A DNA stretch of 64,000 nucleotides. Source: Halostella limicola (GTDB taxonomy: Archaea > Halobacteriota > Halobacteria > Halobacteriales > Natronoarchaeaceae). Position 1 is the first letter of the stretch, and each line of letters opens with the position of its first letter. Made by a program: the position numbers and the translations under genes. The stretch lies in assembly GCF_003675875.1 (NCBI RefSeq), contig NZ_RCDI01000001.1:682001-746000 (forward strand). The letters are read 5' to 3'. Under the pieces are notes generated by a model. That model was not told the DNA's origin. It did not search any database and was given only the letters and a program-made list of their open reading frames with translations. Shown piece by piece: positions 5,236 to 12,648 of this stretch.

Positions 5236-5751
5236 ATGCCCGACGCAGACTCGTCCGGACGCCGTCGCCGCGTCGCCGCGGTCGCCGCCCTCCTCGCCGC
5301 GCTCGCCGGCCTGCTCGTCTGGGGCGGCACCGTCGCGCCCGATCCCTCGGTGAACGACTTCCCCGACGAGGACGAGGTCGGTCCCGCCCCGGGGGAGTAC
5401 GTCGGCGAACGGGTGAAGCTCGGCGGCACCGTGGTCGGAACGGACCCCGTCGTCGTCCGCGTTCCCTACGGCGACGAGTCGATGGACGTCGCGCTCCAGT
5501 CCCTCGACCGAACGGTCGAGCGGGGCGACAGCGTCACTGCCTTCGGGACGCTCCGCGGCGAGCGCACGCTCGCCGTCGAGGGCGTCGTCGTCAGCGAGCC
5601 CTGGGAGATGCAGTATATGTACGTCGTCTCCTTCCTCGGGGGCCTGTGGGTGTTCGCCCGGATCGCTCGACAGTGGCGGTTCGACCGCGAGCAACTGGCG
5701 GTGGTCCCGCGCGGGGAGCGCCGCGGCCCGGACGGTGATCGCGATGCCTGA
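5236..5751 (+). CDS. Membrane-anchored OB-fold-like protein of unknown function
   Basis: The 171-residue protein has an N-terminal membrane helix (about residues 12-30), an extracellular-side beta-rich segment that reads like an OB fold (GEYVGERVKLGGTVVGTDP, then DSVTAFGTLRGERTLAVEG), and a second helix near residue 130. Such domains occur in haloarchaeal membrane proteins without known function. Its stop overlaps the ATG of the following DUF457 gene by eight bases (5744-5751), so the two were probably one translation unit before the insertion sequence entered the second gene. Confidence 0.6.
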   Translation: MPDADSSGRRRRVAAVAALLAALAGLLVWGGTVAPDPSVNDFPDEDEVGPAPGEYVGERVKLGGTVVGTDPVVVRVPYGDESMDVALQSLDRTVERGDSVTAFGTLRGERTLAVEGVVVSEPWEMQYMYVVSFLGGLWVFARIARQWRFDREQLAVVPRGERRGPDGDRDA

Positions 5752-5851
5752 CGTGCTCGCGCACGTCCTCGTCGGGTACTGCGTCGGCACGCTGGCGGCG
5801 GCGTACGACGACCGCCTCGGGCCGGCCCACGTCACGCTCGCGATGCTCGGC

Positions 5852-5990
5852 GCGCTCTCGCCGGACTTCTTGACATCCTCCCACCCCTGAAGGGGTGGGA
5901 TTCCTCCGGTAGGGATGTTGGCTATACTGTCCCCACGGAGGCAAGTTTCCCGTCGCCGGTACTCTGGTTTGTGCGCTCCTCGTTGGGACT
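5852..5990 (-). ncRNA. Predicted omega-RNA (reRNA) of TnpB copy 1
   Basis: In this family the guide RNA scaffold comes from the 3' end of tnpB plus the right end of the element, and the guide is the flanking host sequence. Here the scaffold would run from inside the tnpB 3' end through the hairpin at 5881-5898 to the terminal GGATGTC. The guide would be the reverse complement of about 5852-5871 (AGAAGTCCGGCG...), which is host DUF457 sequence. Position and ends are inferred from the architecture and from the shared right-end sequence in copy 2; the 5' boundary is a guess. Confidence 0.4.
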
Positions 5991-7235
5991 TGCCCTCTCG
6001 GGAGAGTGTGGTATCTCCGACCAGTTGTGGTCGTCCCACTTGAGGCGCACGGGCCGTGCCATCGACCCAACTGCGTGTTCGCCAGCCTGTCGTTCGAGGA
6101 ACGTCCGCGAAGCATCAAGGTCGGCGTGTCCTTCGTAGCCACATGGGCAGTAGAACACGTCGCCGTCCCGCTCTGTATCGTCGTGTTCGCCACACTCTGG
6201 ACACTCCGCCGTCGTGTATGCTTCTGACTCGACTTCAACCGTGATGCCGTACTCCTCGGCAGTCGTTACAAGCCGGTCGATGAACGATCGATACGCCCAG
6301 AACTGATGCGTTTTCTCGTTCACCTCTGGCGACCAGTGTGCCGACAGCACGTCGGTGAGATCACCCACGTACACCGTGGCAACATCCTCTCCATACAGTC
6401 GTTCCAGCAAGTCGCGGACGAGAGCGTCCTGCGCGTGGTTGCGTCTTCGTGTCCGCTTGCGGTACAGGCGTTGAATCCGGCGACTGCTGTACCGGCCCTT
6501 GCGGAGTTTGGACTGCAAGCGGGCCATTTCCTCGGTAGTTTCACGGAAGCGGGCGAACAGGTCGCGGCCCTCGTAGCGGTACTGCTGACCGGTCGTGGTG
6601 GTACAGGCAACGAGGTTGTTCACACCCACGTCCAGAGCAGCCGATTCGTCGGCTACTGGTGAATCCCGTCGAGAATCAGGCACGGTGACGGGTTGAATGG
6701 CCCTGAACGTATCGTCCACCTCGTCGTAGTACAGTTCCAACCGGCTCTGTTCGCCCTCCCACTTCGGGTCGCCAGCAACTTCGAGGCGCAGTCGGTCGTG
6801 GTATCCAAGGCCGTACTCGTCTTTGAGGTCTTGACCGACAGGGATTTCGAGTCGGCTTCGCTCGCCGGTTTCGAGCGTGTACTGGTCGTTGCGGATGTAC
6901 GTTCGCAACTCCCGCCCTTCGTCCTCGTTGCCCCAGTAGCCGGGTGGGGCGGTGTCCTCGCCGTCTTCTCGGGTAGCGAAGAACGACCGCCATGCCTCGC
7001 TGTTCTTGCGAATGACCTGTTGGGCGGTGGCGGAGCCGAGGACGCCAACGTACTGCTTGCGGTAGTCGACGGTATCCCACACTGACTCGCCATCGAAGAA
7101 GTTCTGGCGACGTTCGTAGGTGAGTTCGTTCCACAGGCTGGCGGAGGCGTCCGACAACTCGCGGAGCAGTTGCTCGTCCTGCTCTGAGAGCGGGCTCACC
7201 GCGAACGTGTTGGTTCGCCTCACGACAACAGACAT
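5922..7235 (-). CDS. tnpB: TnpB RNA-guided nuclease-like protein, copy 1
   Basis: The 437-residue protein has the TnpB layout: an N-terminal beta/helical region, a RuvC-like fold and a zinc ribbon. RuvC-I Asp is D202 in LDVGVNNL. The zinc ribbon is C345/C348 (CPEC) and C363/C365 (CPC), followed by [12 protein letters not shown] with D372/D374 as the RuvC-III acid. At the RuvC-II position, usually [IV]xxEDL, it reads VYVGDLTDV (G291), so the canonical Glu is missing; E304 or E307 in [10 protein letters not shown] may substitute. A basic stretch ([10 protein letters not shown]) suits RNA binding. The ATG at 7235 is preferred over a TTG at 7274. The stop lies 50 bases from the element end. Confidence 0.88.
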
Positions 7236-7273
7236 TTGTAACTCTACGTCTAAATGTCTTTTGGACACAGACA

Positions 7274-7417
7274 ATGCGACCGAACATCGACATCTCGCAC
7301 ACGCTGAACGGGCGCGTGAAAGACTACGCTGAACAGCAGGACGTGAGCCTCGAAGAAGCCTATCGGGAGATTATCAAAGCAGGGTTGGAAGCGGTAGAAC
7401 ATCCAGACGGGTCGTAG
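7274..7417 (+). CDS. Small ribbon-helix-helix-like protein divergent from tnpB copy 1
   Basis: This 47-codon frame (ATG 7274, TAG 7415-7417) lies inside the element and diverges from tnpB, with 38 bases between the start codons. The product begins [20 protein letters not shown] and continues with [20 protein letters not shown]. This is a short strand followed by two helices, the shape of CopG/Arc-type ribbon-helix-helix DNA-binding proteins. Copy 2 has a different but similarly shaped gene in the same place, which argues that it is a real gene. A role as repressor of the shared intergenic promoter region is an inference. Confidence 0.6.
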
Positions 7418-8010
7418 CGCGTGGATTGCCGAGCCATGCTGTGGCTTACACCCACCCCTGAAGGGGGGGGGGCTTCCGCTCGCTACGTGTCAAGGTCCGC
7501 ATCCTCCTCTCGAGCGACGTCGTCGCGGGACTGCTCGGGATCCCCTTCTCGTGGTTTCCGCTGCACGCTTTCGGCGGGTTGGCGGTCGTCGTCTGCCTCG
7601 GCGCGCTCGCGGTCGGTTCGGACCACCGCCGCGTCGCCCTCGCGCTGCTGGCGGCCGGCGCGGCGACCCACCTCGCGCTCGACCTGCTGCTTCTGAACGC
7701 CAGCGGCTACGCCTACCCCGTCCTCTGGCCGCTCACCCAGTACCACCCGCCCGCGGGCGGCCTGTACCTCAGCAGCGACCGCCTCCCGACGGTCGTCGCC
7801 GGCCTCGCCGCGGCCGCGCTGCGGGTCGCTGTCGGTGTCCGGGCGCGATAACCGGGCGGTCGAAGCGCTCCGAACGCGCGGGCCCTCGATCCCCGGACTA
7901 CCCCGCCGAAGTCGCCGTATAACGGGTATAAGACGCTCACTACGGGTCTTTCAGGAGCCGTTTACCCGAAACACGTCACCGAATTAACCAGTGATCCGGG
8001 GGCGATCAGT

Positions 8011-11182: not shown

Positions 11183-11320
11183 TTACTCCGGGGTATCCTC
11201 TCTGACTTTCTTCTCGCCCTCGAGGAGCAATCCCTTCCACGTCAACCCACGGTGTTTCTTCAGTTCCTTCAACCGTTCGTACTGTTCGTCGTCGTCAAAT
11301 TCGATGCGAACTTCGACCAT
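11183..11320 (-). CDS. Small ribbon-helix-helix-like protein divergent from tnpB copy 2
   Basis: This 45-residue protein (ATG at 11320, TAA at 11183-11185) begins MVEVRIEFDDDEQYERLKEL and ends with KKHRGLTWKGLLLEGEKKV. The short strand, a helix, then a turn and a second helix match ribbon-helix-helix proteins. It diverges from tnpB with 53 bases between the start codons, in a very A/T-rich stretch (ACATAAAATACATCTTTATGTG) that probably carries both promoters. The sequence is unrelated or only distantly related to the small gene of copy 1, but position and fold type agree. Confidence 0.65.
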   Translation of the reverse strand: MVEVRIEFDDDEQYERLKELKKHRGLTWKGLLLEGEKKVREDTPE

Positions 11321-11373: not shown

Positions 11374-12648
11374 ATGAAGCGAGCCAACATGTTCGAGGTG
11401 GTACCTCAGTCCGACGAGGACGAGGAGTTGCTTCGACGCCTGTTGGACGCTTCTGCCGCTCTCTGGAACGAGATCAACTACGAGCGCCGCGAGAACTACG
11501 CAGACCCAGACGGAGACGTATGGGAAATCAGCGAGTTTCGTGGTCGCTACGGCGGTGTTCTCGGCGCGTCCACAGTTCAGCAAATCGAACGGAAGAACCG
11601 CGAAGCGTGGAAGTCGTTCTTCAGTCTCAAAAAGAAGGGTGAGGCCAACGGGAAACCCGGGTTCTGGGGGAACGCAGACGATGGGCGCGAACTCCGCACG
11701 TATATCCGAAACACCTCGTACTCTGTCGAATGGGGCGAATACTCCCGCCTCGAAATCCTCGTTGGCCAAGACCTGAAAGACGAGTATGGGTTGGGATACC
11801 GCGAACGCCTCCGGCTCGAAGTTCGAGGCGATCCCAACTGGAAGGAGTACGAGAAACAGGGTCGGTTAGAGTTGTTCTACGACGAGCACGCACAATCGTT
11901 CAGGGCCTTTCAGCCAGTCACCGTTGATGATTCTCGGCTGGCACAACCACTGGCTTCGGAAGAAGCCGCTCTGGATATTGGTGCGAACAACCTCGTCGCC
12001 TGCACAACCACAACCGGCCAACAATACCTGTACGTAGGACGCAACCTGTTCGACAGGTTCCGCGAGACAACGCGAGAAATCGCCCGTCTCCAATCACTCT
12101 TGGAGGACGGTCGATACAGCAGTCACCGTATCCAACGGCTGTACGACCGCCGTACCAAGCGACGTGACCACGCCCAAGATGCACTCGCCCGTGACCTCAT
12201 CGAACGCCTCTACGATGAGGGCGTAGCAACGGTGTACGTCGGAGCGTTAACGGACGTACTCGACACCCACTGGTCGGTGGAGACGAACGCGAAGATGCAC
12301 AACTTCTGGGCGTTCCGAGCGTTCGTGAACCGACTGGCGTGTACCGCCGAGGAGTACGGCATCTCGGTCGAGGTTCGCTCGGAGGCGTGGACGAGCCAGG
12401 AGTGCCCGAACTGTGGTTCGACAGAAGACACGACGCGCCACCGCGACACGCTGACGTGTCTATGTGGCTTTGATGGACACGCCGATCTCGTGGCGTCAGA
12501 GACGTTCCTGAGACGGCAGACGACGGTAACACGGCCGATGGCACGGCCTGTATGCCTCAAGTGGGACAACCATAACTGGTCAGAGTCACCAGGCTCAGTT
12601 CCCAACGAGGAGCATACGAACCCGCAAGTTGCCTCCGTGGGTCGGTAA
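11374..12648 (+). CDS. tnpB: TnpB RNA-guided nuclease-like protein, copy 2
   Basis: At 424 residues this is a relative of copy 1, with shared blocks such as [12 protein letters not shown] and [14 protein letters not shown]. RuvC-I Asp is D201 (LDIGANNL), the zinc ribbon is C344/C347 and C362/C364, and D371 lies in [12 protein letters not shown]. The RuvC-II segment reads VYVGALTDV, lacking both the canonical Glu and the Asp that copy 1 still has one residue later; E303 in [10 protein letters not shown] is the shared acidic residue that could replace it. Start and stop are intact, so the protein is probably made. The differences from copy 1 over the whole length show that these are separate arrivals, not a local duplication. 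Confidence 0.88.

What the first reader, a model, noticed from the sequence alone, without database searches (positions are those of the whole stretch)
5744..7851. Scarless tnpB-element insertion into a DUF457 gene, with a guide that matches the repaired gene
Seen directly: host flanks TTCTT (ending 5871) and CAAGG (starting 7491) rejoin without duplication and restore one 162-codon frame. Read along tnpB, the left end abuts TTGA, similar to the TTGAT TAM described for TnpB of IS200/IS605 elements, and the predicted guide is host sequence AGAAGTCCGGCG. Together these recreate TTGA plus AGAAGTCC, exactly the sequence of the element-free gene. This is the arrangement expected if TnpB cuts the empty site to restore the element by repair (retention by guided homing).
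Basis: partly seen in the sequence, partly recalled or inferred. Interest (0 to 1): 0.75.

Follow-up and report, generated by a model that had tools for sequence, protein, structure and literature searches.

The report
Haloarchaeal TnpB transposon interrupting a gene
A small jumping element of a known family, carrying an RNA-guided DNA cutter with a rearranged active site and a tiny putative regulator, sits scarlessly inside a membrane-protein gene of a salt-loving archaeon. Its built-in guide points at the gene's uninterrupted form, as expected for any element of this family.

Summary
The element is window 5870-7488 (1,619 bp), an IS200/IS605-family tnpB-only (IS1341-type) element in a DUF457/YdjM gene (5744-7854 when split). 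Fifty of 50 relatives end in TCAA. The target motif is TGAC, TTGAC here, at 7489-7493. Element-free homologues support this: the same-genus gene and two paralogues in the same genome read GTC-AAR, and none of 36 homologues has Phe there.

'The guide matches the repaired gene' is automatic for any scarless insertion, so it is not evidence of homing.

The TnpB lacks the canonical RuvC-II glutamate (VGDL), but an invariant glutamate sits six residues before the zinc finger. This is the 'Ealt' rearrangement known from Fanzors and some TnpBs. TnpB is under purifying selection, so it is probably a working nuclease.

The element has no TnpA; one TnpA, linked to another tnpB, exists elsewhere in the genome.

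Retention by guided cleavage is plausible and already published for this family. It was not tested here.

The parts
5744..5869 (+). 5' part of the interrupted DUF457/YdjM-type gene (codons 1-42)
   Evidence: Joined frame matches uninterrupted same-genus gene over residues 1-162; Pfam YdjM
5850..5869 (-). Predicted 20-nt guide GAAGTCCGGCGAGAGCGCGC, read from host sequence beyond the right end
   Evidence: RE ends TCAA in 50/50 relatives; homologous empty genes carry 0-10 mismatches
5870..7488 (-). The IS element, 1,619 bp, left end at 7488 and right end at 5870 in tnpB orientation
   Evidence: Ends aligned over many relatives; full-length matches on plasmids stop at the same ends
5870..5904 (-). 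Right end: GAAT, 9-bp hairpin, then AGGATGTCAA; 3' part of the predicted omega-RNA scaffold
   Evidence: 98.5% of cells paired, 6 of 9 pairs with changes on both sides, 0/500 shuffles as high on covariation score
5922..7235 (-). tnpB, 437 aa from ATG at 7235; D202, G291 (canonical Glu lost), E338 (alternative Glu), zinc finger C345/C348/C363/C365, D372
   Evidence: Pfam OrfB_IS605 and Cas12f1-like_TNB; NF040570 guided_TnpB above cut-off; invariant columns; dN/dS about 0.16
7236..7273 (.). 38-bp divergent intergenic region holding a conserved CCAAAAGACATTTAGAC block; possible promoter/operator (inference)
   Evidence: Conserved among relatives
7274..7417 (+). 47-aa small gene divergent from tnpB, putative ribbon-helix-helix DNA-binding protein
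   Evidence: Reading frame kept at 47-51 codons in 27 of 27 relatives checked; median dN/dS 0.14 over 250 pairs; weak RHH similarity
7448..7474 (-). Left-end subterminal hairpin; here its C run is 10 long where relatives read CCCACCCC
7489..7493 (-). TAM / target motif TTGAC (host DNA)
   Evidence: TGAC conserved before the left end in varied flanks and present in empty sites
7489..7854 (+). 3' part of the interrupted gene (codons 43 to stop)

Best explanation
This is a tnpB-only (IS1341-type) element of the IS200/IS605 family that inserted, as a single-strand circle with TnpA supplied in trans, 3' of a TGAC on the - strand of a DUF457/YdjM-type gene. No target duplication formed, and the gene is interrupted. 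Transcription through tnpB and the right end should yield an omega-RNA whose last ~16-20 nt are host sequence GAAGTCCGGCGAGAGC. TnpB, using an alternative RuvC-II glutamate, most likely cuts the TTGAC-flanked empty site whenever the element is lost, and repair from an intact copy restores it. A divergent small, probably ribbon-helix-helix, protein probably represses or balances expression. Shown: the anatomy, boundaries, target motif, empty-site sequence, selection on both genes, and the Ealt signature. Inferred: trans mobilisation, RNA expression, cleavage, retention and the regulatory role.
For: Ends: TCAA in 50/50 and TGAC before the left end, GAAT next to the RE hairpin. GAAT and TCAA are the same tetranucleotides as GR and CR of IS608 (PMC5934647). 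RE hairpin covaries. Empty homologues support the junction at this site and at two other insertion sites of relatives, where empty genes read TGAC|guide. TnpB: guided_TnpB family; nearest folds are Cas12f, TnpB and Fanzor2; 75 proteins lacking the canonical Glu have the alternative Glu, 19 with the canonical Glu lack it, none has both, matching the Ecan/Ealt split in PMC10711439. Purifying selection on tnpB and the small gene. Same element on many haloarchaeal chromosomes and plasmids. One TnpA elsewhere in the genome, whose element has a like RE with TCAA.
Against: No RNA or cleavage data. No TnpA in the element. The left-end hairpin of this copy is altered by a 10-C run, so the copy itself may be immobile, or the run may be a sequencing error. 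A guide matching the empty site is automatic. No exact empty site remains in the genome to act on. The junction is inferred from homologues at 69% identity or less, not from a same-species empty allele.
Confidence: 0.75

Rival explanations
1. The TnpB has lost nuclease activity and acts as an RNA-guided DNA-binding repressor, as nuclease-dead TnpB-like proteins and Cas12m do.
For: The canonical RuvC-II glutamate is an invariant glycine in the clade. A non-canonical RuvC triad in Cas12m2 does not cut dsDNA (abstract of PMC10442227).
Against: D202, E338 and D372 are all invariant, and E338 lies exactly six residues before the zinc finger, the Ealt position shared by Fanzors, of which SpuFz1 cuts dsDNA (PMC10432273). 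Ecan and Ealt are mutually exclusive. The element keeps mobile-type ends.
Confidence: 0.12
2. The element is a passive relic: inserted once, neither mobile nor cutting, and kept by chance.
For: No TnpA in the element (one search finds one only elsewhere); altered left-end hairpin in this copy; the same-genus copy in G003 has a stop codon.
Against: tnpB and the small gene are both intact and show dN/dS of about 0.15 across relatives. Ends are intact and relatives occupy many unrelated sites.
Confidence: 0.12
3. The small divergent gene and TnpB form a host-benefit or toxin-antitoxin-like pair rather than a selfish element with a regulator.
For: Two unrelated small proteins occupy the same divergent slot beside two Ealt TnpB subfamilies; weak similarity to antitoxin-type RHH proteins.
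Against: No toxin gene; the pair moves together within one pair of IS ends across many sites.
Confidence: 0.06
4. The junction is an assembly artefact or chance frame match.
For: None beyond draft status of the genome (9 contigs).
Against: Ends coincide with family-wide ends and the joined frame matches homologues over its full length.
Confidence: 0.01

Closest known systems
ISDra2 TnpB (IS200/IS605), PMC8612924
   Same: TAM 5' of the left end, omega-RNA from tnpB 3' end plus RE, guide from the flank, insertion without duplication; retention model proposed there
   Different: TAM is NTGAC rather than TTGAT; no tnpA; canonical RuvC-II Glu replaced by Gly with Ealt; small divergent gene
IS608 ends (PMC5934647)
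   Same: RE hairpin preceded by GAAT and end TCAA, identical to IS608 GR and CR
   Different: Left cleavage motif TGAC instead of TTAC; no tnpA
Haloarchaeal IS1341-type elements with sotRNAs/omega-RNAs (PMC12558985, PMC8303175, PMC3119063)
   Same: tnpB-only elements common in haloarchaea, mostly without linked tnpA; RNAs from the 3' end are expressed in Halobacterium
   Different: Rfam sot0042 and sot2652 families did not match here; the passages of these papers read here did not mention a small divergent gene
Ealt TnpBs and Fanzors (PMC10711439)
   Same: Catalytic Glu moved to six residues before the zinc finger
   Different: DVG in RuvC-I rather than DPG, so it resembles the other Ealt clade (D-hydrophobic-G), not pro-Fanzors

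Membership tests
IS200/IS605 family | Subterminal hairpins at both ends, on the same strand | tested here: met
   LE and RE hairpins, RE with strong covariation
IS200/IS605 family | Insertion 3' of a short fixed motif with no target duplication | tested here: met
   TGAC; empty sites at three loci
IS200/IS605 family | Encodes a Y1 transposase TnpA | tested here: not met
   Only one Y1_Tnp in the genome, about 179 kb away on the same contig. Filed as the tnpB-only IS1341 group of the family, whose members lack it (PMC3119063)
OMEGA TnpB nuclease | RuvC D-E-D triad and zinc finger | tested here: met
   D202, E338 (alternative position), D372, C345/C348/C363/C365 invariant
OMEGA TnpB nuclease | RNA from tnpB 3' end through RE into the flank | tested here: inconclusive
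   Predicted fold z = -2.38; expression not testable
OMEGA TnpB nuclease | TAM-dependent RNA-guided cleavage | not testable with these tools
   needs biochemistry
Fanzor / pro-Fanzor | DPG in RuvC-I together with Ealt | tested here: not met
   DVG here
Nuclease-dead TnpB-like repressor | Loss of catalytic triad | tested here: not met
   Canonical Glu lost but alternative Glu invariant; activity itself untested
Ribbon-helix-helix regulator (small gene) | Strand-helix-helix and family HMM match | tested here: inconclusive
   Two helices at 11-22 and 26-40, no strand in the monomer model; ArtA E 0.036, FitA-like RHH E 0.061; Foldseek not significant
DUF457/YdjM gene | PF04307 match above cut-off | tested here: met
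   33.9 versus 29 bits for the joined protein

The most novel reading that the evidence does not exclude
Haloarchaea host a large subfamily of Ealt TnpB elements in which the RNA-guided nuclease is regularly paired with a divergently encoded small ribbon-helix-helix repressor. At least two different small-protein families fill this role, making a self-regulated, tnpA-free guided element.
Probability: 0.4. Interest if true: 0.5.

Novelty: new member of a known kind. Interest (0 to 1): 0.35.

Why it matters
The insertion itself is a clean textbook case with a defined TAM, guide and empty-site sequence, so guided retention could be tested directly in an archaeon. The clade is a natural archaeal set of rearranged-active-site TnpBs, outside the cyanobacterial lineage linked to Fanzors. 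If the small co-encoded proteins regulate TnpB, that would be a transcriptional control layer that I did not find described in the papers searched.

Tried and rejected
Reading TnpB as dead from the E-to-G change alone: rejected after the Ealt check. Rfam: only a sub-threshold HgcC hit ending 7 nt inside the guide (E 0.032), and no match in ten related loci. A Foldseek search for the small protein gave no significant match. A first orientation error (minus-strand loci read in the wrong sense) was corrected.

Full report
Setting. The window lies in a haloarchaeal genome (G000, contig C2, 682001-746000). The genome carries 11 matches to the TnpB zinc-finger family and a single Y1 transposase.

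Observation. On the - strand, 5922-7235 encodes a 437-aa TnpB. The gene split around it encodes a 162-aa protein that aligns end to end with an uninterrupted gene of a same-genus genome (L021, 69%) and with many haloarchaeal homologues; the joined protein hits PF04307 YdjM. So the scarless interruption is real.

Boundaries. I aligned the ends of relatives, most of them fetched from named genomes and a few from unnamed ones. All 50 right ends that could be placed over their full length finish in TCAA, preceded by a covarying 9-bp hairpin (98.5% of cells paired; 6 of 9 pairs changed on both sides; 0 of 500 shuffles as high on the covariation score), itself preceded by GAAT, whose last T forms the outermost pair. 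Left ends start just after TGAC (T 28, G 25, A 25, C 23 of 31 distinct flanks) while the base before the T is not fixed. This places the element at 5870-7488 and the target motif TTGAC at 7489-7493. The frame is unaffected, but one base differs: the rebuilt gene reads GGACTTC|GTCAAGG (DFVK).

Empty sites. L021 and the two own-genome paralogues L026 and L027 have GTC AAR at this point. Among 36 homologues Val is commonest (18) and Phe never occurs. For two other insertion sites of relatives (L069, L082), element-free genomes read TGAC|guide with no extra or missing base in nearly all cases, so TGAC is host DNA and insertion is scarless at those sites too. At a third site (L062), empty genomes support the same placement, two of them with one base fewer next to the junction; at the L061 site the one homologue found has a gap at the junction and is uninformative. 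The own genome has no exact copy of TAM plus guide; the nearest TTGAC-flanked site is in paralogue L027, with three mismatches at guide positions 1, 3 and 7.

What the guide match means. In an insertion without duplication, the flank beyond the right end is by definition the sequence that follows the TAM in the empty site.

The nuclease. The canonical RuvC-II motif VEDL reads VGDL, and the glycine is invariant in the aligned clade (G291). An invariant glutamate (E338) lies six residues before the first zinc-finger cysteine (C345). This is the Ealt position defined in PMC10711439. Across my set, 75 proteins have Gly or Ser at the canonical place and Glu at the alternative place, 19 have the reverse, and none has both; the one exception is an out-of-frame fragment. 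RuvC-I is DVG, so this is not the DPG pro-Fanzor type. TnpB evolves under purifying selection (dN 0.05, dS 0.32-0.34 against two relatives). I judge it probably active; that is inference.

The missed gene. Between the left-end hairpin and tnpB, divergent from tnpB, lies a 47-aa gene (7274-7417, +). Its frame stays open over 47-51 codons in all 27 relatives checked, with median dN/dS 0.14. Similarity to ribbon-helix-helix proteins is weak, so the name is provisional. The second TnpB of the window (11374-12648, +), also Ealt, has a different 45-aa gene in the same slot (11183-11320, -), conserved at 84% identity or more beside seven further TnpBs. A co-encoded regulator is the most economical reading, untested.

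Mobility. No TnpA is in the element. The genome's one TnpA sits beside another tnpB (about 508.9-510.5 kb on C2) whose right end has the same layout and TCAA, so mobilisation in trans is possible. tnpB genes without a linked tnpA are the majority in several haloarchaea (PMC3119063). Full-length copies lie on haloarchaeal plasmids. This copy's left hairpin carries a 10-C run where relatives read CCCACCCC.

Verdict. A new, well-delimited member of a known kind, with corrected boundaries, a TGAC motif, an Ealt nuclease and a conserved small partner gene. Guided retention is the leading explanation of what TnpB does, by analogy with ISDra2 (PMC8612924), but it has not been shown here.

Noticed in passing
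window 11374-12648 (+) and 11183-11320 (-): A second Ealt TnpB gene with a different divergent 45-aa small gene, conserved in L092, L094, L095, L097-L099 and L033. Its right end was not delimited.
   Followed up: partly
L063, L065, L067, L068, L070, L080, L110, L115: Eight relatives from several genera and plasmids share the same flanks on both sides, next to a gene resembling the YedK/SRAP family (from memory). This may be long-term retention, repeated homing or transfer with flanks.
   Followed up: partly
L066, L090, L113, L086, L116: TnpB is 76-89% identical to the window's but the small protein only 53-60%, suggesting left-end exchange between elements.
   Followed up: no
window 7448-7474: Run of ten C in the left-end hairpin where relatives read CCCACCCC; it weakens the perfect stem, or is a sequencing error.
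   Followed up: no
window 5863-5997 (-): Sub-threshold full-length match to Rfam HgcC (E 0.032), at the position of the predicted omega-RNA.
   Followed up: no
L083, L084, L103; L078, L081: Further pairs or trios of relatives in different species share insertion flanks.
   Followed up: no
window 7236-7273: Conserved block CCAAAAGACATTTAGAC between the two divergent genes, a candidate operator or promoter.
   Followed up: no
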